This document shows, in pieces, positions 411-39,300 of a stretch of 64,000 nt of DNA. The DNA comes from Eudorina sp. 2006-703-Eu-15. Its lineage: Eukaryota > Chlorophyta > Chlorophyceae > Chlamydomonadales > Volvocaceae. The stretch spans positions 220,561 to 284,560 of the forward strand of contig BDSI01000087.1 in the NCBI GenBank assembly GCA_003117195.1, in the 5' to 3' direction. How positions within the stretch are numbered: position 1 is the stretch's first letter; the number at the start of each line of letters is the position of its first letter. The notes beneath the pieces are model-generated. The model had not been told where the DNA came from. It worked only from the letters and a program-made list of their open reading frames with translations, and searched no databases. A program made the translations under genes and the position numbers.

Positions 411-3400
411 CCGCCGGTACGCCGTACACCTGCAGCTCCGCGACCTGCAGCAGGGTGTCGCCGCCCGTCGCCGCCGCCACCCCGCCGCCGCCGCCGCCGC
501 CGCCGCCACCGCTGCCGCCGCGGAAGCTCTGCACGGTCACGTAGCGCCCGGTCGGGGGCGCGGCGCTGAGGTCGATGACGATTACCTCGCCGGTGGAGCC
601 GGGCGCGGTTGTGGTGTGCACCAGCTGGTTCAGTTGGATCTGACCGTTGGTCAGTCGGTTGCTGACCAGCGCGCCGCCAACGCGGAACTCCGTGCCAGCG
701 GGGCGCTCGCCGCAGCAGTCCCGCCGGTTGAAAAAGACGATGCGGCTGACGGTGACCAGCCCGCCCAAATCCAGGGACAGCCAGGGGCTTGCATCTCCGG
801 CACTGCTGCGGAAGATGGCAGTACCGCGGTCGGGTATGACGCCGTCTGACGCGAACTGGGGACCGAACAGAGAGGTGTTGGCGTCAGCGACCGAGGATGC
901 AAAGGTCATCCGGGCGTACGACAGAATCTGGGCCGGAGGTGGAGGCGGAGGCGGTGGCGATGGCGTTTGAGGAGGCGGCGTCGGCGAGGGAGGTAGCGGG
1001 CTGGGTGGTGGCGACGGCGGCAAAGGGCTTGGCGGCAGGGGCGGAGGCGATGGCGGTTGCGGTGATGGTGGTGGAGAGGGAGGAAGGGGGCTGGGCGGTG
1101 GCGACGGTGGCAAAGGGCTAGGTGGCGGAGGCGGTGGCGACGACGGTTGCGGAGACGGCGGCTGTGAGGGAGGTAGCGGGCTGGGTGGTGGCGATGGCGG
1201 CAAAGGGCTTGGCGGCAGGGGCGGAGGCGATGGCGGTTGCGGTGATGGTGGTGGAGAGGGAGGAAGGGGGCTGGGCGGTGGCGACGGCGGCAAAGGGCTT
1301 GGCGGCGGAGGCGGAGGCGATGGCGGTTGCGGAGACGGCGGCTGTGAGGGAGGAAGGGGGCTGGGTGGTGGCGACGGTGGCAAAGGGCTTGGCGGCGGAG
1401 GCGGAGGCGATGGCGGTTGCGTAGACGGCGGCTGTGAGGGAGGTAGCGGGCTGGGTGGTGGCGACGGTGGCAAAGGGCTTGGTGGCGGAGGCGGAGGCGA
1501 TGGCGGTTGCGGTGATTGTGGTGTAGAGGGAGGAAGGGGGCTGGGTGGTGGCGACGGTGGCAATGGGCTAGGTGGCGGAGGCGGTGGCGACGACGGTTGC
1601 GGAGACGGCGGCTGTGAGGGAGGTAGCGGGCTGGGTGGTGGCGATGGCGGCAAAGGGCTTGGCGGCAGGGGCGGAGGCGATGGCGGTTGCGGTGATGGTG
1701 GTGGAGAGGGAGGAAGGGGGCTGGGCGGTGGCGACGGCGGCAAAGGGCTTGGCGGCGGAGGCGGAGGCGATGGCGGTTGCGGAGACGGCGGCTGTGAGGG
1801 AGGAAGGGGGCTGGGTGGTGGCGACGGTGGCAAAGGGCTTGGCGGCGGAGGCGGAGGCGATGGCGGTTGCGTAGACGGCGGCTGTGAGGGAGGTAGCGGG
1901 CTGGGTGGTGGCGACGGCGGCAATGGGCTAGGAGTTGAAGGCGGTGGCGATGGCGGTTGCGGTGATGGTGGTGGAGAGGGCGGAAGCGGGCTGGGTTGTG
2001 GCGACGGTGGCAAAGGGCTAGGAGGTGGAGGCGGTGGCGATGGCGGTTGCGGTGATGGTGGTGGAGAGGGTAAAAGCGGGCTGGGTGGTGGCGACGGTGG
2101 CAAAGGGCTAGGTGGCGGAGGCGGTGGCGATGGCGGTTGCGGAGACGGCGGCTGTGAGGAAGGTTGCGGCAATGGGCTAGGTGGTGGAGGCGGTGGCGAT
2201 AGCGGTTGCGGTGATGGTGGTGGAGAGGGTGGAAGCGGGCAGGGTGGTGGCGACGGCGGCAATGGGCTAGGTGGCGGAGGCGGTGGCGATGGCGGTTGCG
2301 GAGACGGCGGCTGTGAGGGAGGTAGCGGGCTGGGTGGTGGCGACAGCGGCAATGGGCTAGGAGGTGGAGGCGGTGGCGATGGCGATTGCGGTGATGGTGG
2401 TGGAGAGGGCGGAAGCGGGCTGGGTGGTGGCGACGGTGGCAAAGGGCTAGGAGGTGGAGGCGGTGGCGATGGCGGTTGCGGTGATGGTGGTGGAGAGGGC
2501 GGAAGCGGGCTGGGTGGTGGCGACGGCGGCAAAGGGCTAGGTGGCGGCGGAGGCGTTGGCGATGGCGGTTGCGGTGATGGTGGTGGAGAGGGCGGAAGCG
2601 GGCTGGGTGGTGGCGACGGCGGCAATGGGCTAGGTGGTGGAGGCGGTGGCGATAGCGGTTGCGGTGATGGTGGTGGAGAGGGTAGAAGCGGGCTGGGTGG
2701 TGGCGACGGCGGCAAAGGGCTAGGTGGCGGAGGCGGTGGCGATGGCGGTTGCGGAGACGGCGGCGGCGAGGGAGGTAGGGGGCTGGGCGGTGGCGACGGC
2801 GGCAATGGGCTAGGTGGTGGAGGCGGTGGCGATAGCGGTTGCGGTGATGGTGGTGGAGAGGGTGGAAGCGGGCAGGGTGGTGGCGACGGCGGCAATGGGC
2901 TAGGTGGCGGAGGCGGTGGCGATGGCGGTTGCGGTGATGGTGGTGGAGAGGGCGAAAGCGGGCTGGGTGGTGGCGACGGCGGCAAAGGGCTAGGTGGCGG
3001 AGGCGGTGGCGATGGCGGTTGCGGTGATGGTGGTGGAGAGGGCGGAAGCGGGCTGGGTGGTGGCGACGGCGGCAAAGGGCTAGGTGGTGGAGGCGGTGGC
3101 GATAGCGGTTGCGGTGATGGTGGTGGAGAGGGTGGAGGCGGGCTGGGTGGTGGCGACGGTGGCAAAGGGCTAGGTGGCGGAGGCGGTGGCGATGGCGGTT
3201 GCGGAGACGGCGGCGGCGAGGGAGGTAGGGGGCTGGGCGGTGGCGACGGCGGCAAAGGGCTAGGTGGCTGAGGCGGTGGCGATGGCGGTTGCGGAGACGG
3301 CGGCCGCGAGGGAGGTAGCGGGCTGGGTGGTGGCGACGGCGGCAATGGGCTAGGAGTTGAAGGCGTTGGCGATGGCGGTTGCGGTGATGGTGGTGGAGAG

Positions 3401-6400
3401 GGCGGAAGCGGGCTGGGTTGTGGCGACGGTGGCAAAGGGCTAGGAGGTGGAGGCGGTGGCGATGGCGGTTGCGGTGATGGTGGTGGAGAGGGTAAAAGCG
3501 GGCTGGGTGGTGGCGACGGTGGCAAAGGGCTAGGTGGCGGAGGCGGTGGCGATGGCGGTTGCGGAGACGGCGGCTGTGAGGAAGGTAGCGGCAATGGGCT
3601 AGGTGGTGGAGGCGGTGGCGATAGCGGTTGCGGTGATGGTGGTGGAGAGGGTGGAAGCGGGCAGGGTGGTGGCGACGGCGGCAATGGGCTAGGTGGCGGA
3701 GGCGGTGGCGATGGCGGTTGCGGAGACGGCGGCTGTGAGGGAGGTAGCGGGCTGGGTGGTGGCGACGGCGGCAATGGGCTAGGAGGTGGAGGCGGTGGCG
3801 ATGGCGATGGCGGTGATGGTGGTGGAGAGGGCGGAAGCGGGCTGGGTGGTGGCGACGGTGGCAAAGGGCTAGGAGGTGGAGGCGGTGGCGATGGCGGTTG
3901 CGGTGATGGTGGTTCAGAGGGCGGAAGCGGGCTGGGTGGTGGCGACGGCGGCAAAGGGCTAGGTGGCGGCGGAGGCGTTGGCGATGGCGGTTGCGGTGAT
4001 GGTGGTGGAGAGGGCGGAAGCGGGCTGGGTGGTGGCGACGGCGGCAATGGGCTAGGTGGTGGAGGCGGTGGCGATAGCGGTTGCGGTGATGGTGGTGGAG
4101 AGGGTAGAAGCGGGCTGGGTGGTGGCGACGGCGGCAAAGGGCTAGGTGGCGGAGGCGGTGGCGATGGCGGTTGCGGAGACGGCGGCGGCGAGGGAGGTAG
4201 GGGGCTGGGCGGTGGCGACGGCGGCAATGGGCTAGGTGGTGGAGGCGGTGGCGATAGCGGTTGCGGTGATGGTGGTGGAGAGGGTGGAAGCGGGCAGGGT
4301 GGTGGCGACGGCGGCAATGGGCTAGGTGGCGGAGGCGGTGGCGATGGCGGTTGCGGAGACGGCGGCTGTGAGGGAGGTAGCGGGCTGGGTGGTGGCGACA
4401 GCGGCAATGGGCTAGGAGGTGGAGGCGGTGGCGATGGCGATTGCGGTGATGGTGGTGGAGAGGGCGGAAGCGGGCTGGGTGGTGGCGACGGTGGCAAAGG
4501 GCTAGGAGGTGGAGGCGGTGGCGATGGCGGTTGCGGTGATGGTGGTGGAGAGGGCGGAAGCGGGCTGGGTGGTGGCGACGGCGGCAAAGGGCTAGGTGGC
4601 GGCGGAGGCGTTGGCGATGGCGGTTGCGGTGATGGTGGTGGAGAGGGCGGAAGCGGGCTGGGTGGTGGCGACGGCGGCAATGGGCTAGGTGGTGGAGGCG
4701 GTGGCGATAGCGGTTGCGGTGATGGTGGTGGAGAGGGTAGAAGCGGGCTGGGTGGTGGCGACGGCGGCAAAGGGCTAGGTGGCGGAGGCGGTGGCGATGG
4801 CGGTTGCGGAGACGGCGGCGGCGAGGGAGGTAGGGGGCTGGGCGGTGGCGACGGCGGCAATGGGCTAGGTGGTGGAGGCGGTGGCGATAGCGGTTGCGGA
4901 GACGGCGGCGGCGAGGGAGGTAGGGGGCTGGGTGGTGGCGACGGCGGCAATGGGCTAGGTGGCGGAGGCGGTGGCGATGGCGGTTGCGGTGATGGTGGTG
5001 GAGAGGGCGAAAGCGGGCTGGGTGGTGGCGACGGCGGCAAAGGGCTAGGTGGCGGAGGCGGTGGCGATGGCGGTTGCGGTGATGGTGGTGGAGAGGGCGG
5101 AAGCGGGCTGGGTGGTGGCGACGGCGGCAAAGGGCTAGGTGGTGGAGGCGGTGGCGATGGCGGTTGCGGTGATGGTGGTGGAGAGGGTGGAGGCGGGCTG
5201 GGTGGTGGCGACGGTGGCAAAGGGCTAGGTGGCGGAGGCGGTGGCGATGGCGGTTGCGGAGACGGCGGCGGCGAGGGAGGTAGGGGGCTGGGCGGTGGCG
5301 ACGGCGGCAAAGGGCTAGGTGGCTGAGGCGGTGGCGATGGCGGTTGCGGAGACGGCGGCCGCGAGGGAGGTAGCGGGCTGGGTGGTGGCGACGGCGGCAA
5401 TGGGCTAGGAGTTGAAGGCGTTGGCGATGGCGGTTGCGGTGATGGTGGTGGAGAGGGCGGAAGCGGGCTGGGTGGTGGCGACGGCGGCAATGGGCTAGGT
5501 GGTGGAGGCGGTGGCGATAGCGGTTGCGGTGATGGTGGTGGAGAGGGTGCAGGCGGGCTGGGTGGTGGCGACGGTGGCAAAGGGCTAGGTGGCGGAGGCG
5601 GTGGCGATGGCGGTTGCGGAGACGGCGGCGGCGAGGGAGGTAGGGGGCTGGGCGGTGGCGACGGCGGCAAAGGGCTAGGTGGCGGAGGCGGTGGCGATGG
5701 CGGTTGCGGAGACGGCGGCCGCGAGGGAGGTAGCGGGCTGGGTGGTGGCGACGGCGGCAATGGGCTAGGTGGCGGAGGCGGTGGCGATGGCGGTTGCGGT
5801 GATGGTGGTGGAGAGGGCGGAAGCGGGCTGGGTTGTGGCGACGGTGGCAAAGGGCTAGGAGGTGGAGGCGGTGGCGATGGCGGTTGCGGTGATGGTGGTG
5901 GAGAGGGCGGAAGCGGGCTGGGTGGTGGCGACGGCGGCAATGGGCTAGGTGGTGGAGGCGGTGGCGATGGCGGTTGCGGTGATGGTGGTGGAGAGGGCGG
6001 AAGCGGGCTGGGTGGTGGCGACGGCGGCAAAGGGCTAGGTGGCGGCGGAGGCGTTGGCGATGGCGGTTGCGGTGATGGTGGTGGAGAGGGCGGAAGCGGG
6101 CTGGGTGGTGGCGACGGCGGCAATGGGCTAGGTGGTGGAGGCGGTGGCGATAGCGGTTGCGGTGATGGTGGTGGAGAGGGTAGAAGCGGGCTGGGTGGTG
6201 GCGACGGCGGCAAAGGGCTAGGTGGCGGAGGCGGTGGCGATGGCGGTTGCGGAGACGGCGGCGGCGAGGGAGGTAGGGGGCTGGGCGGTGGCGACGGCGG
6301 CAATGGGCTAGGTGGTGGAGGCGGTGGCGATGGCGGTTGCGGTGATGGTGGTGGAGAGGGTGGAAGCGGGCTGGGTGGTGGCGACGGTGGCAAAGGGCTA

Positions 6401-7362
6401 GGAGGTGGAGGCGGTGGCGATGGCGGTTGCGGTGATGGTGGTGGAGAGGGCGGAAGCGGGCCGGGTGGTGGCGACGGCGGCAAAGGGCTAGGTGGCGGAG
6501 GCGGTGGCGATGGCGGTTGCGGTGATGGTGGTGGAGAGGGCGGAAGCGGGCTGGGTGGTGGCGACGGCGGCAAAGGGCTAGGTGGTGGAGGCGGTGGCGA
6601 TGGCGGTTGCGGAGACGGCGGCGGCGAGGGAGGTAGGGGGCTGGGTGGTGGCGACGGCGGCAATGGGCTTGGCGGCGGAGGCGGGGGCAAGGGCGGTTGC
6701 GGAGATGGCGGCGGCGAGGGAGGTAGGGGGCTGGGCGGCGGAAGCGGTGGCGGCAGTGGGCTCGGCGGGGGCGAGGGCGGAATCGGGCTAGGAGGCGGCG
6801 AAGGAGGCAGGGGGCTGGGTGGCGGAGGCGGCGGTGGTGGCGGGATCGCCGCATCTGCCCACAACCACGAATAATCACCTCGCAGTATCACCGTTTTGTC
6901 TGGAGCGATGAGGGACGTCGTCATCCACGCCATGTTGGCTAATACATTCACATACTGGAAGACAAACAGGTTGAGGCCCGCCGGCAGGTCAACCCACAAT
7001 ACCGTACTGCCGGATGACGAGCCCTGTACGGCTGAGCCCACCTGCACGCCGTTCAAGTACACCTGCACGACATGGAAGTCGTTCGGGATGTATTGCATCT
7101 TCAGATAGAGAGTCGAGTTTGAGATAGGTGCCGCCAGGTTGAGTGTCCGGGCGAAGTAGGTCCAGCGGCTCGCCCTCTGCTGGATGAAGCGGCCGCTGTC
7201 GGTCGACCAGAGCATGGGCGCAGCCGGATCCACCGCCAAGAGGGGGTCGCCAGTCCAGTAGTACAAATTAGACCCTGCCACGAGGCCAGCCGAAATGATA
7301 CTAACTATTTGCAGGGGTGCGATTAGGCAACCAAGCACCGGTGTACGCACGCTTTCGTTCAT
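411..7362 (-). CDS. Gene A: giant Ser-Pro-rod extracellular matrix protein with fucolectin-like domain (3' partial)
   Basis: One exon of 2317 codons is visible, from ATG at 7362 to a likely phase-1 donor (GTATGG) at 410; the 3' exon lies off the left edge. The start gives a signal-peptide-like N-terminus (MNESVR, then a hydrophobic stretch to about residue 31). Residues ~32-172 form a beta-sandwich-like domain (motifs [23 protein letters not shown]) resembling galactose-binding folds. Residues ~173-2142 are an almost pure [25 protein letters not shown] rod, typical of volvocine hydroxyproline-rich glycoproteins. Residues ~2144-2317 resemble the F5/8C/fucolectin family, with the hallmark [20 protein letters not shown] and an ending [12 protein letters not shown] poly-Gly insert sits near the end of this domain. 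By analogy with gene B, a PAN exon probably follows outside the window. A role as a secreted wall/matrix rod with a sugar-binding head is inferred, not shown. The proline codons are highly repetitive, so assembly length may be unreliable. Confidence 0.8.
950..6840 (-). repeat. ~90-bp Ser-Pro codon repeat array with higher-order repeats
   Basis: Coding minisatellite of about 65 units, each about 90 bp (30 residues of S/P with periodic L and Q). Variant units recur far apart: a marker unit ending GGTGGCTGAGG appears near 3261 and again near 5316 (about 2.05 kb apart), and a shortened unit appears near 2161 and 3583 (about 1.42 kb apart). This indicates repeated segmental duplication inside the array. 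Almost all length changes are multiples of three, so the frame is kept. Confidence 0.9.
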
Positions 7363-7613
7363 GGGCAGATACGGAAGGCTACATACGTCCTTGATGATGG
7401 GCCGGGCTCAGGGACCTCTGTGCAACCTGAGGAGGAATGAGCTACAGCTACGGCTACGGCTATGGATACGGCTGCGGTTATGTCTATGGTGACAGTTACA
7501 GCTACGATTACGGTTACGATAACGGTTACAGTTGCAGTTGCGGTTACGGTTACGGCTACGGTTACGGTTACGGCTACATCAACGGCTCGCTATGGTTTCT
7601 CAAGCTTATGTTC
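7363..7613. other. Spacer between gene A start and gene B stop, with TACGGY repeat and poly(A) signals
   Basis: Holds the gene B 3' UTR and the gene A upstream region. Positions ~7442-7588 are a degenerate TACGGY/GTTACG hexamer repeat that reads as Tyr-Gly on the plus strand. On the minus strand it supplies TGTAA at 7530-7526 and 7500-7496, about 85-115 nt after the gene B stop, the usual volvocine poly(A) signal. The same spacer recurs at 10405-10655. Confidence 0.55.
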
Positions 7614-10404
7614 TTACGTCCACTTTACCGGAGCTGGTCGCTCACCCCTTCTCGCACCCACCACCCTGTCCGCATCCCTCCAGAACGGCAGCATGGTGTT
7701 GATCTGCTGGTCGGGTTTGAGGCGGCAGGTGCGCGTGCTCCGCTCGAAGTCCCAGTAGAGGCAGGCGGGGGTGGTGTAGCAGGCCTGGCAGCAGGCGCCC
7801 TCGTCGGGCGCGGCGAAGGCGGACACCACGTTGCTGTCGCTGCCGTACCCCGCGCCGTACAAGAGCTGCAGGCTGCAGGCTGCGTGGACAGGCAGCGCGG
7901 CGGGGGGCACATGACAGATCCACGCACGTGTGCTCGTTGGCGTCACCTCCACGCGGCGGTGGATCCGTCGGCGTTATCACTTTCACATACAACCATTTTG
8001 CTTGCAGGCAGGCACGCACGCACCCGGGCAGCGGACCAACGGACGGACTGGAGGACGCGACGATCGACACTCGGAGAACGCAACAGGGAACTTTGGATGT
8101 ATCTTATCCCCTTCATTCGGGAGGTCTATCTCCGGAAGGTCTTTGGCTGCTACATACTTGGACGTGATTTGGCCGCAGGCAAAGCACTCCAACAGCACCC
8201 TCAGCTGATGAAAGAATCCGCCGACAGCCTGCTGCCGACATGTGACGGCCCACGCAGCTCGGACGAATGCATGGCAAGCAGCTACGTAGGACGAATGACG
8301 GCAGACGCAGCTCGTCATTCGACCGCAGCCTTATTAGTGGGCATATCGCTCTTGGTGTTTATTTTATGGTCTGGGGCAGGGCGGGGCAGTCAGGTAGCGT
8401 GCTATGTACGTTCGGGCACCTCCGGGCGTAGCTGTGCCTCCTGCATGTTTGTCACGCACTCGTGCTCTGCCTGCTGCCTAGCTACCAAAACACAACCATA
8501 GCGATGGATAATGGGGTGCGACCTAGCTCCCCCGCCCGTGCTTGGCTATATCTACTTCTGGGGATCCCGCCCGTTGATGTGCCTATCCCGTCGGTAGTGG
8601 TGCCCCCCTGTGCGCCTCTGCTTACGTAGGTAATTGTCTGGGTGGGTGGGTTTATGGCCCTCTGCTGTGTGCTTGTTCGGGTCGTTGAGGTGTGGAGGTG
8701 TCTTGCCGGTGGGGCGCTGGGGCCTGCTGGGGCTTGCCCTGGTATATCTACACCGTTGATCCCTCTTCGGGGTCCGATGTAACGTTCATTCATTCGTTCA
8801 TAGCGATAGTACTTCGTTGCGATGCCCGGGCCGATGCAACCCTGAATTGCACCGACCCACGTTTGTAAAACAATCAGATACGGTAGTTTACTTGTTCGGC
8901 AAGCATGGTACTTACTTGCGGGTGTGCCGTACACCTTCAAATCGGCTATCTGCAGTGCCATATTCGTGTCGTTTCTGTTCCACTTCGGCATCTGTACGAC
9001 CACGAAGCGGCCCGTCAGCGGTGGATCCAGAACCAGGGTGTAGGTGCCGCCGGTGGTCAAGGGATTCTGCGTCGCGCCGTTTGTGAGGAGCGTTATGTTC
9101 GGGTTGGCGTTCGTCTGGCCGAATCGCCTGTCCCTGACCCCGGAACTGCCGAAGAAGAAATTCAGGGACCGGGTCTGGTTGCCGCAGCAATCGATCCGGT
9201 TGGTGTACACGATTTGTGTGACCGTAACCAGCTCATTGAAGTCCAGGCCAAACGAGGGCGAAGGTTGGGTATCGTTGAAATCGGTGCTGAAGAAGGTGTT
9301 CAGGTCGCCATCTGTGGCCATGGACGCTGCGTACATGTTCGAGTTGTTCAGCAGTGATGTCCATGCCAGCGTTTTGTTGATGGCGGCGTTGGCGACGAGG
9401 TCCAATGCGGGAGGGGGCGGCGGAGGCGGGGGCAAGGGCGGTTGCGGAGAAGGCGGCGGCGAGGGAGGAAGCGGGCTGGGAGGCGGTGACGGCGGCAAAG
9501 GGCTAGGCGGCGAAGGCGGCGGTGAGGGCGGTTGCGGAGACGGCGGCGGCGAGGGAGGAAGCGGGCTGGGAGGCGGTGACGGCGGCAAAGGGCTGGGCGG
9601 CGGAGGCGGCGGTGAGGGCGGTTGCGGAGACGGCGGCGGCGAGGGAGGAAGCGGGCTGGGAGGCAGTGACGGAGGTGGAACGCTTGGCAGTGAAGGAGGT
9701 GGCGAGGGCGGTTGCGGCGGGGGTGGCGGCGAGGGAGGCAGCGGGCTGGGGGCCGGCGACGGTGGCAGCGGGCTTGGCGGCGGTGGCGGTGGCGGCAGTG
9801 GGCTCGGCGGGGGCGAGGGCGGAATCGGGCTAGGAGGCGGCGAAGGAGGCAGGGGGCTGGGTGGCGGAGGCGGCGGTGGTGGCGGGATCGCCGCATCTGC
9901 CCACAACCACGAATAATCACCTCGCAGTATCACCGTTTTGTCTGGAGCGATGAGGGACGTCGTCATCCACGCCATGTTGGCTAATACATTCACATACTGG
10001 AAGACAAACAGGTTGAGGCCCGCCGGCAGGTCAACCCACAATACCGTACTGCCGGATGACGAGCCCTGTACGGCTGAGCCCACCTGCACGCCGTTCAAGT
10101 ACACCTGCACGACATGGAAGTCGTTCGGGATGTATTGCATCTTCAGATAGAGAGTCGAGTTTGAGATAGGTGCCGCCAGGTTGAGTGTCCGGGCGAAGTA
10201 GGTCCAGCGGCTCGCCCTCTGCTGGATGAAGCGGCCGCTGTCGGTCGACCAGAGCATGGGCGCAGCCGGATCCACCGCCAAGAGGGGGTCGCCAGTCCAG
10301 TAGTACAAATTAGACCCTGCCACGAGGCCAGCCGAAATGATACGAACTATTTGCAGGGGTGCGATTAGGCAACCAAGCACCGGTATACGCACCCTTTCGT
10401 TCAT
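7614..10404 (-). CDS. Gene B: chimeric secreted protein, N-terminal sandwich domain + short Ser-Pro rod + fucolectin-like + PAN/Apple domain
   Basis: Two exons: 10404-8916 and 7879-7614, joined in phase 1 (donor GTAAGT at 8915, acceptor CGCAG ending 7880), giving 584 aa. Residues 1-172 nearly match gene A (signal-like MNERVR plus hydrophobic run, then the sandwich domain). Residues ~173-335 are a short PPSP rod. Residues ~338-497 are a fucolectin/F5-8C-like domain with TNRIDCCGNQTRSLNFFFG and ADLKVYGTPA. Exon 2 encodes a PAN/Apple-like module with its Cys pattern in EGACCQACYTTPACLYWDF and RTCRLK. PAN and fucolectin domains bind carbohydrate or protein, so an extracellular matrix role is inferred. 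The 3' half is nearly identical to gene C and the 5' half to gene A. The start is the first Met of the conserved N-terminus; an unseen upstream exon cannot be excluded. Confidence 0.8.
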
Positions 10405-10655
10405 GGGCAGATACGGAAGGCTACATACGTCCTTGATGATGGGCCGGGCTCAGGGACCTCTGTGCAACCTGAGGAGGAATGAGCTACAGCTACGGCTACG
10501 GCTATGGATACGGCTGCGGTTATGTCTATGGTGACAGTTACAGCTACGATTACGGTTACGATAACGGTTACAGTTGCAGTTGCGGTTACGGTTACGGCTA
10601 CGGTTACGGTTACGGCTACATCAACGGCTCGCTATGGTTTCTCAAGCTTATGTTC
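10405..10655. other. Spacer between gene B start and gene C stop (copy of 7363-7613)
   Basis: Second copy of the Tyr-Gly-type hexamer spacer, 3042 bp away from the first. Minus-strand TGTAA signals at 10572-10568 and 10542-10538 are probable poly(A) signals for gene C. The 5' flank of gene B also lies here; no TATA-like box is obvious. Confidence 0.5.
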
Positions 10656-12806
10656 TTACGTCCACTTTACCGGAGCTGGTCGCTCACCCCTTCTCGCACC
10701 CACCACCCTGTCCGCATCCCTCCAGAACGGCAGCATGGTGTTGATCTGCTGGTCGGGTTTGAGGCGGCAGGTGCGCGTGCTCCGCTCGAAGTCCCAGTAG
10801 AGGCAAGCGGGGGTGGTGTAGCAGGCCTGGCAGCAGGCGCCCTCGTCGGGCGCGGCGAAGGCGGACACCACGTTGCTGTCGCTGCCGTACCCCGCGCCGT
10901 ACAAGAGCTGCAGGCTGCAGGCTGCGTGGACAGGCAGCGCGGCGGGGGGCACATGACAGACCCACGCACGTGTGCTCGTTGGCGTCACCTCCGCGCGGCG
11001 GTGGATCCGTCGGCGTTATCACTTTCACATACAACCATTTTGCTTGCAGGCAGGCACGCACGCACCCGGGCAGCGGACCAACGGACGGACTGGAGGACGC
11101 GACGATCGACACTCGGGGAACGCAACAGGGAACTTTGGATGTATCTTATCCCCTTCATTCGGGAGGTCTATCTCCGGAAGGTCTTTGGCTGCTACATACT
11201 TGGACGTGATTTGGCCGCAGGCAAAGCACTCCAACAGCACCCTCAGCTGATGAAAGAATCCGCCGACAGCCTGCTGCCGACATGTGACGGCCCACGCAGC
11301 TCGGACGAATGCATGGCAAGCAGCTACGTAGGACGAATGACGGCAGACGCAGCTCGTCATTCGACCGCAGCCTTATTAGTGGGCATCTCGCTCTTGGTGT
11401 TTATTTTATGGTCTGGGGCAGGGCGGGGCAGTCAGGTAGCGTGCTATGTACGTTCGGGCACCTCCGGTCGGAGCTGTGCCTCCTGCATGTTTGTCACGCA
11501 CTCCTGCTCTGCCTGCTGCCTAGCTACCAAAACACAACCATAGCGATGGATAATGGGGTGCGACCTAGCTCCCCCGCCCGTGCTTGGCTATATCTACTTC
11601 TGGGGATCCCGCCCGTTGATGTGCCTATCCCGTCGGTAGTGGTGCCCCCTTGTGCGCCTCTGCTAACGTAGGTAATTGTCTGGGTGGGTGGGTTTATGGC
11701 CCTCTGCTGTGTGCTTGTTCGGGTCGTTGAGGTGTGGAGGTCTCTTGCCGGTGGGGCCTGCTGGGGCTTGCCCTGGTGTATCTACACCGTTGATCCCTCT
11801 TCGGGGTCCGATGTAACGTTCATTCATTCGTTCAATTCGTTGCGATGCCCGGGCCGATGCAACCCTGAATTGCACCGACCCACGTTTGTATAACAATCAG
11901 ATACGGTAGTTTACTTGTTCGGCAAGCATGGTACTTACTTGCGGGTGTGCCGTACACCTTCAAATCGGCTATCTGCAGTGCCATATTCGTGTCGTTTCTG
12001 TTCCACTTCGGCATCTGTACGACCACGAAGCGGCCCGTCAGCGGTGGATCCAGAACCAGGGTGTAGGTGCCGCCGGTGGTCAAGGGATTCTGCGTCGCGC
12101 CGTTTGTGAGGAGCGTTATGTTCGGGTTGGCGTTCGTCTGGCCGAATCGCCTGTCCCTGACGCCGGAACTGCCGAAGAAGAAATTCAGGGACCGGGTCTG
12201 GTTGCCGCAGCAATCGATCCGGTTGGTGTACACGATTTGTGTGACCGTAACCAGCTCATTGAAGTCCAGGCCAAACGAGGGCGAAGGTTGGGTATCGTTG
12301 AAATCGGTGCTGAAGAAGGTGTTCAGGTCGCCATCTGTGGCCATGGACGCTGCGTACATGTTCGAGTTGTTCAGCAGCGATGTCCATGCCAGCGTTTTGT
12401 TGATGGCGGCGTTGGCGACGAGGTCCAATGCGGGAGGGGGCGGCGGAGGCGGAGGGAGACCTGCGGGTGGCGAAGGAAGGGCCACATACACATCTTGAGT
12501 TTTTGTAGTTTGATTGCAGAGCAGTACGTAGTGAACTATGCTATGCGTGCTATGACTGTCAATCTAGGCATCGTACCAGCCATCATTTGGAAGCCGGTAC
12601 AGCAAATCCAAGCCGTACAGACGCTCACGATATTGCTTGGGGAGCCAAATGCTATGGGTCCCAAACCATCCGGCACGCCTTTATTTGCGTCTTCGTTACA
12701 TTACTTTGAATATCTACATGCATATATACATAAATATCCCACCTTGCGCACTGACGGCTGCAGGGGCCGCTGCCAAGAGCCACAGCGCCAGCAGGGCCAG
12801 CAGCAT
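10656..12806 (-). CDS. Gene C: small secreted fucolectin-like + PAN/Apple protein
   Basis: Three exons: 12806-12743, 12460-11939 and 10921-10656, all junctions phase 1, giving 283 aa. Exon 1 is a clean signal peptide (MLLALLALWLLAAAPAAVSA) ending at the donor AAG|GTGGGA. Exon 2 starts after CACCCGCAG with a short proline run ([10 protein letters not shown]) and then a fucolectin/F5-8C-like domain that reads the same as gene B, including NRIDCCGNQ. Exon 3 is the same PAN/Apple module as in gene B. The Met at 12806 was chosen because it begins the signal peptide. An in-frame Met at 12950 would add 48 residues rich in Gln/Arg/His/Pro and would hide the signal. Gene C lacks the sandwich domain and long rod of A and B and is the likely donor of the 3' half of B. 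A secreted lectin-like function is inferred. Confidence 0.75.
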
Positions 12807-14544
12807 GTGCAGCAGCGGGGCCAGCGAGGGCTGTTGTCCGCCGCACCGCCACGCCGGCCGCCACGGAAGCTGCTGCGGCCGCTGGTGGTGGTGCTGCCGG
12901 CGAGGCCATTGTTGGCGGAGGCGCTGCATCGAAGGTTGCTGCATGTCCAAGCTCAGCGGCGCGGCGGATGGAGGCTAGGTAGCTCGGCGGGGATATATGG
13001 ATCTTTGCCAGCAGCCAGGGAGCAAGGTCGGTGTGTGTACTCAGCGCCGACCTGCAGCCGCGCACGCCCGCCGGCGGAGCTGTTATTAATTCAGCGTCGG
13101 CAGCCTATCGAGCGGCGGGCCACCCTCATACCGCGGGGAATGGCGGTCGACCGCCTGCGTGCGTGCGTGAACGGTGTGCGAGCGCGGGCGCCGACGTGCG
13201 TACGCGCGATGGATCAAATGTGGTCCACACAGACAGACGACCAAGTAAGAAAACAATGAATGAATGAAAACAGTGAATGAGTCAATGTAGTAGAATCATA
13301 AGCAAGGAGGCCATGCAGCAGTTGTGCTGTGCGTCAGGTCTGTGTGCTTTCTTCCGTCGTTTGTCGACCGTCGTTGAATGGCCCGTGCATGCGTGGCCAT
13401 GAGCCAACCGACACCACGGGCGCTGCCTGACCGATCAAAGCAATTGGCGATCGATGAAACCCGAATCCGACTGGCCATGTAAACAGGACTCATCTCGGCT
13501 TCGTACGAGTACAGCCCCACCTTCAGCGGCAAGCGGCCGGCTGGCGGGGATGCGAGCGACGAGGCAAGGCTGTACACAAGGAACGCCGCGGCGAGCCAAG
13601 GCGGTTGCAGTCATACAGCATGAGATGAAATTGCTACAATTAAGAAAATTTTGTATTTATGGTTTCTATGGAAAACCTGGTTCGCGGCTCTGTTACCTTT
13701 GACCAGGTTATATTACATGGCCTGCGTGACGTACACTTAGTGCAATCGCTCTGTAACTGCCACAAACTTTAACACATTAACAATTTACAAATATTTAATT
13801 TCATAGATCGGAAGTTCCATCCGTTTCTGTGTCATCGCGCGCTGCTCGAGTGCGCCGGTTAATCTTCGTTTCGTCGAGGCACTGACTTAATTAGGCAAGC
13901 ATGGCTTTCTGAATTCTTGTCTGAGGATCAATAGTGTCATACAATATCGCACACCTTGATACCGCGCATATGGAGCACCTACCCCATTGCGTTCGATGTT
14001 CTAGGCAGAAGGGGCAATATTGCGGGACCGAACACACTCACATAAAAATATTATTTTTGACATGCATCGACCTCCTAGAGACCTCTATTTCTTGCTGGAT
14101 GGTTCAAGTCGCTGCAGTGCTGCGGAAAAAGGAGCACGGAATTCCTCTGTACGACGGCGATGTACTACTGCTGCTGCTTCGCTAGCTACGTACATGCTGG
14201 GGGGGTCAGTCCTGCGACGCAGACATGCAACACCATGCGGGATCAGTCCTACAATGCCAATCTGATTTAAAGCAATTATTCATCGTTATGTCTGCTGATT
14301 TGTTGTAGGATTGGAAGGGCCAGCTTGGATGATGAGTTCACACCTCCACGCTTTTATGAGCCTAGCCCAGCCTGCTGGTCCGGATTGTACCAACGATAAT
14401 GAAATATTTATTTATTTGCCAAGCATTGATACTGTTACTCGGCTAATCAGTTTCCGCGCAGGGGGCCGCCCTGCGCCTCGCCCACGTGCGCGCCACAGTA
14501 TCATCCATCCGCACCCACCGTGCACAGCACGCAGTGTGTCATGT
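12807..14544. other. Upstream region of gene C and gene-poor AT-richer DNA
   Basis: Contains the 5' flank of gene C. From about 13600 to 14300 the base composition drops to unusually AT-rich for this window, with no conserved reading frame on either strand. No RNA gene or promoter could be supported. Confidence 0.4.
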
Positions 14545-36341: not shown

Positions 36342-39300
36342 TCATATCTCGTGGTCATCGTCCGGGACATCGTCGTCCTCCAACACAATCTCCTCGTCGT
36401 CCTCCGTCTCCTCCTCATCGCTGTTGAACCGTACGGCAGCCGCCAGCGCGCCGTTGGCCTTCGGCGCGCGACGCGACCTCGCCGCCGCCAGACTGCCGCC
36501 CGCGTGCCCGTACTCGTACCCGTACCCGCCGCCCTCGCTGCCGCCGTCCCGCGAGCCGCGGCTCCCGCCACCGCGCTGCTGCTGCTGCTGCTGCTGCTGC
36601 CCCGAGCGCTCGAATTCGTGCTGGACCATGTCGCGTACCATGTTGCCGTACGTGATCTTCAGATCTCCTTCGAACATCTCGGGCAGGTGAGACGTGACGG
36701 ACCCCACCAGCTTCTCCAGGCAGGTCTGCGGCGGCCGGCCGGGGCCGGCGGGTCGCCAAGGCAGCGCCATGGGGGCGCGCGTGGGCCGCCCCGCGTACGT
36801 CCGCGCCGTGTGCTGTCCACAGGAGGGGTCCGTTGGGCGAGAGGGGCAGCGGAGGTGAGAGAGGGGAGGGCGCGAGGGGTTTAGGGCATTGACAGACATA
36901 AATTCAGCCGCGCTGCTGCTGCTGCTGCTGCCAGATCTCAGATCCGCTCGGGGTACGACGGAAGCGAAAGCTTGTCTGGACAGGCAGGGGAACGGGCCAA
37001 GTGTCAAGGAGACCCGAGCAGGCCGGACCACCGAACCAGCATCAGGTTTGCCTACATCAAGCGATGACGAGGTTCAAAATGACAGTTAAAACTACGCAGG
37101 AGGAGCTAGCTAGCTAGCTAGCTAGCTAGCTGATATGGCCGCAAGATGCGGCACGAGGTTGCGAGGCACCCGGTAGTCCACGTGGGCGGCGCTGATGGAT
37201 GTACCGCAGACGCAACATACGGCAGCGAGTGCCGCCGTTCTTGCGGCCGCCGCCATCACCATCACCATCACCATCACAGCCCAACGGGAGATTGGGAGTA
37301 CCATCGCGGATCGGACGCAGCCAGCCGCGAAGTACATGTCATAGGCATCACATCAACCCGCCACCTAGCCCTCCATCCAACCCTCCATCCAACCCTCCAT
37401 CCAACCCTCCAGCCAACCCTCCATCCAACCCGCCACCTAGCCCTCCATCCAACCCTCCCATCCATCCACCTCCCTCCATCCAGCCGCCACCTAGCCAGCC
37501 CGCCCTCCATCCATCCATCCAGCCCTCCATCCAACCCTCATCCAACCCTCCATCCAGCCTCCAGCCAACCCTCCATCCAACCCGCCACCTAGCCCTCCAT
37601 CCAACCCTCCATCCAACCCTCCATCCAACCCGCCACCCAGCCCTCCATCCAGCCCTCCATCCAACCCTCCATCCAACCCTCCATCCAGCCCTCCATCCAA
37701 CCCTCCATCCAACCCTCCATCCGACCCTCCATCCAACCCTCCATCCAACCCTCCATCCAACCCGCCACCCAGCCCTCCATCCAGCCCTCCATCCAACCCT
37801 CCATCCAGCCCTCCATCCAACCCTCCATCCAACCCTCCATCCAACCCTCCATCCGACCCTCCATCCAACCCTCCATCCAACCCTCCATCCAACCCTCCAT
37901 CCAACCCTCCATCCAACCCTCCATCCAACCCTCCATCCAACCCTCCATCCAACCCTCCATCCAACCCTCCATCCAACCCTCCATCCGACCCTCCATCCAA
38001 CCCTCCATCCAACCCTCCATCCAACCCGCCACCCAGCCCTCCATCCAGCCCTCCATCCAACCCTCCATCCAGCCCTCCATCCAACCCTCCATCCAACCCT
38101 CCATCCAACCCTCCATCCGACCCTCCATCCAACCCTCCATCCAACCCTCCATCCAACCCTCCATCCAACCCTCCATCCAACCCTCCATCCAACCCTCCAT
38201 CCGACCCTCCATCCAGCCCTCCATCCAACCCTCCATCCAACCCTCCATCCAACCCTCCATCCAACCCTCCATCCAGCCCTCCATCCAACCCTCCATCCGA
38301 CCCTCCATCCAACCCTCCATCCAGCCCTCCATCCAGCCCTCCATCCAACCCTCCATCCAACCCTCCATCCAACCCTCCATCCAACCCTCCATCCAACCCT
38401 CCATCCAGCCCTCCAGCCGACCCTCCATCCAACCCGCCACCTAGCCCTCCATCCAACCCTCCATCCAACCCTCCATCCAACCCGCCACCTAGCCCTCCAT
38501 CCAACCCTCCATCCAGCCCTCCATCCAGCCCTCCATCCAACCCTCCATCCAACCCTCCATCCAACCCTCCATCCAACCCTCCATCCGACCCTCCATCCAA
38601 CCCTCCATCCAACCCTCCATCCAACCCTCCATCCAACCCTCCATCCAGCCCTCCATCCAACCCTCCATCCGACCCTCCATCCAGCCCTCCATCCAACCCT
38701 CCATCCAACCCTCCATCCAACCCTCCATCCAACCCTCCATCCAGCCCTCCATCCAACCCTCCATCCGACCCTCCATCCAACCCTCCATCCAGCCCTCCAT
38801 CCAGCCCTCCATCCAACCCTCCATCCAACCCGCCACCCAGCCCTCCATCCAACCCTCCATCCAACCCTCCATCCAGCCCTCCAGCCGACCCACATGGAAC
38901 TGCGTGGACACGAGGCTCATGATGTCCATGTGGGAAGTGGGGTTCTCCGCCATCTCCACCGCCAGGGCCATCGGCTGGAGCCCAGCCGGCGGCGCCGCGG
39001 CCGCGGCGGCAGCACCGCCGCCGCTGTCGCCGTCGGCGCCGCCGGGCGGCAGCGACGGCACCGCCCGCGACCTGTCGTACTCAACGTGGAACCAGGTGAT
39101 GGCGCTGGATACGGTGTCTGGCGGGGCATCCGGCAACGGCGCAAGATGGGCAGCGGCGAAGCGGATGTGAGCGGCGGCTCCCCGGCGGCTCAGTACCACC
39201 CGAACCAGAGATAGCAGGGGGTCGGGGCCCCATACCGTGCACCAGGCTCCCTCGCCAGCCATCATCCCTCACCGGCTCGCCGGCCATCATCCCTCACCGG

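What the first reader, a model, noticed from the sequence alone, without database searches (positions are those of the whole stretch)
6743..12453. Gene B is a fusion gene born by tandem duplication with both breakpoints in proline-codon repeats
The duplicated block does not contain a whole gene. It runs from the rod of A leftward gene end across the spacer into the fucolectin domain of the next gene. The 5' half of B (signal, sandwich domain, first rod codons) copies A; the 3' half (fucolectin, intron, PAN) copies C; the private rod of B, 9430-9785, is exactly the junction. It shows Ser-Pro repeats acting as recombination sites that shuffle lectin heads between matrix proteins, in an event young enough that the copies are almost identical.
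Basis: seen in the sequence. Interest (0 to 1): 0.75.

Follow-up and report, generated by a model that had tools for sequence, protein, structure and literature searches.

The report
Duplicated lectin module inside one gene
The three "genes" are most likely pieces of one long green-alga surface-protein gene in which a lectin-bearing block occurs twice in nearly identical form, so this is a repeated module within a gene rather than a newborn fusion gene.

Summary
Its edges lie in proline-coding DNA. The gene boundaries are wrong. The "spacers" fit 371-base phase-1 introns joining each PAN domain to the next sandwich domain. Six exons read open for 3147 codons: signal, Fuc, PAN, sandwich, short rod, Fuc, PAN, sandwich, long rod, Fuc'. 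The same phase-1 splice is found in 23 of 27 PAN-sandwich pairs in the genome, two of them this gene's own. A Pleodorina protein runs Fuc-PAN-sandwich twice in one chain. In the modelled exons no substitution changes an amino acid (11 expected if neutral). So there is no gene B but a compound exon and two near-identical modules. The short rod is only 85% like the long rod, whose pieces match each other at 99%, and paralogue C123 has the same layout. Recent homogenisation of an older module pair is therefore somewhat likelier than one recent duplication. No RNA or long-read test was possible.

The parts
12743..12929 (-). exon 1: signal peptide (MQRLRQQ...LLALLALWLLAAAPAAVSAQ, judged by eye), phase-1 donor; other in-frame ATGs at 12944 and 12806
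   Evidence: a similar exon end lies ahead of the first Fuc in C123
10688..10921 (-). exon 3: PAN1
9433..9785 (-). rod1 stretch shared by neither block copy; best 60-base matches to the long rod average 85%
7880..8915 (-). phase-1 intron Fuc2 to PAN2 (its counterpart in module 1 is 10922-11938)
7646..7879 (-). exon 5: PAN2
6744..9429 (-). left copy of the repeated block (Fuc-intron-PAN-intron-sandwich-first rod codons, module 2)
9786..12452 (-). right copy of the repeated block (module 1)

Best explanation
One gene on the minus strand, from about 12929 leftward past the window's left edge, encodes a secreted modular protein: signal, Fuc1-PAN1-sandwich1, short Ser-Pro rod, Fuc2-PAN2-sandwich2, a Ser-Pro rod of nearly 2000 residues, Fuc', and, beyond a run of N, probably PAN'-sandwich'-stop. 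Modules 1 and 2 are 99.3% identical, introns included. The introns of the model are all phase 1, so modules keep frame when copied; the seam between modules lies in exonic proline codons, where an in-frame joint is tolerated. The most likely history is an older internal duplication of one Fuc-PAN-sandwich module, followed by recent copying of one module's sequence onto the other (gene conversion or unequal exchange) that stopped where homology ends: the poly-proline linker on one side and the diverged rods on the other. The protein probably works as a cell-surface or matrix lectin with several sugar-binding heads spaced by stiff proline-rich rods; that function is inferred, not shown. Single gene: about 0.9. 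Homogenisation rather than first duplication: about 0.6. The confidence below is for the single modular gene.
For: Six exons joined at phase-1 GT-AG sites read open for 3147 codons. PAN-to-sandwich phase-1 donor and acceptor in 23 of 27 pairs in the genome, this gene's two included, against 1.2% of 20000 random placements (many pairs are near-copies, so fewer are independent). In C123 one of the two sandwiches has no ATG in its open upstream frame; the other has one. Pleodorina P0001 has [42 protein letters not shown] in one chain (domains read by eye); Volvox P0002 and P0003 also run PAN into sandwich, by eye. Between the copies the modelled exons carry 3 of 19 substitutions, all synonymous, and the introns 16 (Fisher p 0.005); 0 amino-acid changes against 11.1 expected. 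For an older pair: C123 has the same layout with introns at 39-40% yet a PAN patch with 49 intron bases at 2 of 286, against Fuc at 40 of 524 (p 3e-6), a conversion-like pattern; rod1 is no fresh copy of the long rod; the rod just left of 6744 looks like an array edge, 88-90% like the rest in its first two 60-base pieces.
Against: No transcript or annotated model of this gene was available; a search for long annotated relatives found none. The supposed intron before each sandwich is open for 44 codons and contains an ATG followed by a hydrophobic stretch that could pass for a signal peptide (no signal predictor was run); it also contains TGTAA, recalled as the volvocine poly(A) signal, within a GTAACC-like repeat. 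Four of 27 pairs do not meet the splice test, one of them at a contig end. Some paralogous copies carry a stop in a domain, so not every copy is intact. The PAN'-sandwich' pair lies across a 9892-base run of N, so its membership is inferred. Trees give C87 and C123 pairs by locus, which fits independent duplications as well as conversion, and the spread of substitutions fits one event too.
Confidence: 0.85

Rival explanations
1. Same single gene, but module 2 was born recently by one tandem duplication from the exon-2 proline linker to the start of the rod; the long rod later lost the stretch that survives as rod1.
For: Substitutions are spread as one event would give: introns 13 of 1017 and 3 of 371, synonymous 3 against 3.6 expected. 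The seam lies where linker and rod proline codons could pair. One-module genes (Fuc-PAN-sandwich-rod-Fuc') are found in C4 and C40.
Against: A single joint leaves no private sequence, yet rod1 has 353 bases found in neither flank; sampled 60-base pieces of the long rod match each other at 99.4% but rod1 pieces match it at 85%. The edge units left of 6744 do not look like internal units laid bare by a deletion. C123 shows the same two-module layout, which may be ancestral.
Confidence: 0.36
2. One reading: A, B and C are separate genes and B is a fusion gene of A's front and C's back.
For: Open frame with ATG and a hydrophobic stretch before each sandwich; stop codons when the spacer is read through; TGTAA in the spacer.
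Against: Phase-1 splice in 23 of 27 pairs; an annotated homologue with PAN and sandwich in one chain, twice, and two more by eye; a C123 sandwich without an ATG in its open upstream frame; the three substitutions nearest the sandwich would alter the supposed signal while the sandwich itself has none in 531 bases.
Confidence: 0.07
3. Assembly artefact: one module laid down twice.
For: High identity; an N run borders the window on the left.
Against: 19 substitutions and two indels between the copies with no amino-acid change, which random error would not spare; 353 private bases between them; C123, C27 and C40 have multi-module layouts too.
Confidence: 0.03

Closest known systems
Pleodorina starrii hypothetical protein PLESTM_001568000 (P0001)
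   Same: signal, then Fuc-PAN-sandwich twice in one chain with a poly-proline linker between (by eye); 35% identical over 96% of the queried part
   Different: 831 residues, no long rods, no third module; the two modules are diverged
Volvox carteri VOLCADRAFT_92832 and 92913 (P0002, P0003)
   Same: PAN runs directly into the sandwich domain; P0003 has a poly-proline linker and a Fuc fragment near its start (by eye)
   Different: shorter models; P0003 seems to end in a membrane span and tail (by eye)
Pherophorins
   Same: globular domains separated by a proline-rich rod of strongly varying length, matrix proteins of volvocine algae (passages of PMC9818292)
   Different: no pherophorin family was listed at E up to 1 for the five pieces scanned; the heads here are F5/8-type, PAN and an unnamed sandwich
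F-type lectins (eel lectin, 1k12)
   Same: Fuc' aligns to it at E 1.7e-10 and keeps the RxDCCGER stretch; Fuc2 aligns at 2.3e-6, behind a bacterial F5/8 protein at 1.2e-6
   Different: the residue aligned to chain position H52 is Ser in Fuc', and by eye the second Arg is Gln in Fuc1/2; the sugar-binding role of these residues is recalled, so fucose binding is not assured

Membership tests
Volvocine Fuc-PAN-sandwich modular proteins (P0001 type) | order Fuc-PAN-sandwich in one open chain after splicing | tested here: met
   gene model; domain order; P0001
Volvocine Fuc-PAN-sandwich modular proteins (P0001 type) | expressed as one transcript | not testable with these tools
   no RNA data
Fusion gene (two parent genes joined) | two separate parent genes with their own starts and ends | tested here: not met
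   phase-1 splice joins PAN to sandwich in 23 of 27 pairs; single-chain homologue
Gene conversion between internal modules | near-identity patches bounded by diverged homologous sequence | tested here: inconclusive
   sharp edges in C87; conversion-like PAN patch in C123; a duplication plus a deletion also fits C87
Fucose-binding F-type lectin | His and two Arg of the sugar site (motif recalled) | tested here: inconclusive
   alignment keeps both Arg in Fuc' but not the His; Fuc1/2 read RIDCCGNQ (by eye)
Pherophorin | pherophorin domains at the rod ends | tested here: not met
   one search lists none at E up to 1 in the five pieces scanned; the whole gene was not scanned

The most novel reading that the evidence does not exclude
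Proline-codon linkers act as standing recombination seams that let these genes gain, lose and overwrite whole Fuc-PAN-sandwich modules in frame, so that head number and spacing of a matrix lectin evolve as quickly as the rod repeats. The array of at least seven modules at 99.3-99.8% identity in C27 would be the extreme case; of its four inter-module stretches that could be read, two are proline rods open in one frame and two carry stops in every frame, so that array may be partly broken.
Probability: 0.3. Interest if true: 0.55.

Novelty: new member of a known kind. Interest (0 to 1): 0.36.

Why it matters
It turns a striking gene-birth claim into a module repeat within a gene, and points to a lectin-like matrix protein family in which module copies seem to be added or overwritten repeatedly. 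The listings of ten searches of the held papers, with passages seen in two papers, showed no description of this family; the library is limited and titles or abstracts were all I saw of the rest. Such genes would suit a test of how fast surface proteins change head number and spacing.

Tried and rejected
Considered that B's private rod is a fresh copy of A's rod: rejected, its best matches average 85%. Considered that C has a rod of its own: rejected, a splice acceptor precedes its linker. Tried trees to decide duplication against conversion: the C87 pair and the C123 pair come out by locus in the sandwich and Fuc trees and as identical pairs in the weakly resolved PAN tree, while in C40 the sandwiches group partly by position; this does not decide. 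Tried rod likeness between C87 and C123: no position signal (only part of the C123 long rod was held). The predicted fold of P0001 was useless (mean pLDDT 36). The sandwich model (pLDDT 67, pTM 0.65) gave only weak matches, TM-score to the query 0.47 or less in the 50 listed, among them tail-fibre, carbohydrate-binding and adhesin beta domains. The search for longer annotated relatives found none. Both protein searches that found something scored only the 7969 and 7995 candidates sharing most words.

Rows dropped: locus C176 was left out of the splice counts because I had turned it the wrong way round. The trees used 22 of 26 sandwich, 27 of 30 Fuc and 24 of 29 PAN rows (identical C27 rows left out), after short matches and C176 had been left out.

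Full report
What is there. The window is C87:220561-284560 of an unnamed 181-Mb assembly in 3033 contigs. Base composition (65% G+C), Ser-Pro rods and the fact that the few homologues found are from Pleodorina and Volvox suggest a volvocine green alga; that is inference. Within 5-14 kb a block is present twice in tandem: 6744-9429 and 9786-12452, with 19 substitutions in 2667 aligned bases and indels of 8 and 11 bases. Left of 6744/9786 the likeness falls at once inside a Ser-Pro rod; right of 9429/12452 it falls inside a poly-proline stretch.

Gene boundaries. On the minus strand the order is signal exon, Fuc (F5/8 type C, above its Pfam cut-off), PAN (PAN_1, above its cut-off), a sandwich domain with no Pfam family above cut-off, then rod, Fuc, PAN, sandwich, long rod, Fuc'. 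Three lines speak against the cut. First, PAN ends in G|GTGAG and the sandwich begins at CAG|G in matching phase 1, and the six exons join open for 3147 codons. Second, 23 of 27 PAN-sandwich pairs in the genome, this gene's two included, show a phase-1 donor and acceptor near the expected places, with intron lengths from about 140 to 1570 bases, against 243 of 20000 random placements. Many of the 27 are near-copies, so the more independent cases are the C87, C123, C40, C4 and C27-like groups. Third, P0001 of Pleodorina starrii reads, by eye, [42 protein letters not shown] in 831 residues, and Volvox P0002 and P0003 run PAN into sandwich. The substitutions agree: exons 3 of 1279, introns 16 of 1388 (p 0.005), the exon changes all synonymous (PAN GCC/GCT, Fuc GGG/GGC and TCA/TCG), none of about 11 expected amino-acid changes. 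Both modules therefore look constrained as modelled. Points against: each supposed intron contains an open frame of 44 codons with an ATG and a hydrophobic stretch, and TGTAA strings; no RNA evidence was available.

The gene's far end. Left of the window lie 9892 N (C87:210669-220560) and then, on the same strand, a PAN piece (209859-209761) and a sandwich (209092-208772 matched, 57% identical to the third sandwich of a C40 gene) followed by a stop, again with a phase-1-compatible donor and acceptor by eye. The gene probably has three Fuc-PAN-sandwich modules, the third of another type.

Relatives in the genome. C123 holds Fuc-PAN-sandwich-rod-Fuc-PAN-sandwich-long rod-Fuc'-PAN, the same layout. 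Between its two modules the introns are at 39-40% (unalignable), Fuc differs at 40 of 524, sandwich 20 of 426, PAN 1 of 237, and the 49 intron bases before PAN 1 of 49. The PAN patch of 2 in 286 against Fuc 40 in 524 gives p 3e-6, as conversion would. C40 holds two-module and one-module genes and C4 two one-module genes; some copies in C40 and small contigs carry a stop in a domain. C27 has at least seven modules at 99.3-99.8%; of four inter-module stretches that could be read, two are open proline rods and two carry stops in every frame as cut. In C87, C123, C27 and one C40 gene (C40-Z) the first module starts with a proline linker just after a splice acceptor, and the following module meets its rod at that linker, by eye; the second module of another C40 gene (C40-X), matched only in pieces, showed no proline-coding stretch there.

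Duplication or overwriting. A single recent tandem duplication would join A's rod to C's linker directly. Instead 353 private bases lie at the joint. Their 60-base pieces match the long rod at 85% on average (highest 92%), while sampled pieces of the long rod match each other at 99.4%. The first two 60-base pieces left of 6744 are 88-90% like the rest of the rod, as an array edge would be. Hence rod1 seems older than the 1.2% intron divergence of the block, and the simplest account is an older module pair, as in C123, recently made alike. A recent duplication followed by loss from the long rod stays possible at about 0.36, and the even spread of substitutions does not speak against it.

How it may work. 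Phase-1 introns on both sides of PAN and exonic proline seams let modules be copied without breaking frame. The product would be a secreted matrix or surface protein with several lectin-like heads on stiff rods, in general plan like pherophorins (passages of PMC9818292) but with other heads. Fuc' resembles eel lectin (E 1.7e-10) but lacks the aligned His; Fuc1/2 lack the second Arg by eye; sugar specificity is unknown. One passage of PMC10256686 mentions a male-specific Pleodorina gene with an FTP (fucolectin) domain; I did not test whether it is related.

Noticed in passing
G000:C27:11881-38696: At least seven Fuc-PAN-sandwich modules, introns included, at 99.3-99.8% identity, separated by stretches of different length; related pieces on small contigs C349, C1137 and C783 suggest a larger, unresolved array.
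   Followed up: partly
window 931-6840: The long rod holds about 65 units of 90 bases with larger repeats inside it: 60-base pieces recur almost identically at offsets such as 2055, 450 and 1443 bases.
   Followed up: partly
P0003 (Volvox carteri): A relative with poly-proline linker, Fuc fragment, PAN and sandwich that seems by eye to end in a membrane span and a short tail, so some family members may be membrane-bound.
   Followed up: no
window 37351-38891: About 1.5 kb of tandem repeat with many matches to itself.
   Followed up: no
G000:C40:477025-534905: Cluster of about four family members on one strand, with one or two modules each plus Fuc'-PAN'; a third sandwich was matched in three of them, and some copies carry a stop or are matched in pieces.
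   Followed up: partly
G000:C87:210669-220560: A 9892-base run of N ends exactly where the window begins, between Fuc' and the probable PAN'-sandwich' end of the gene.
   Followed up: no
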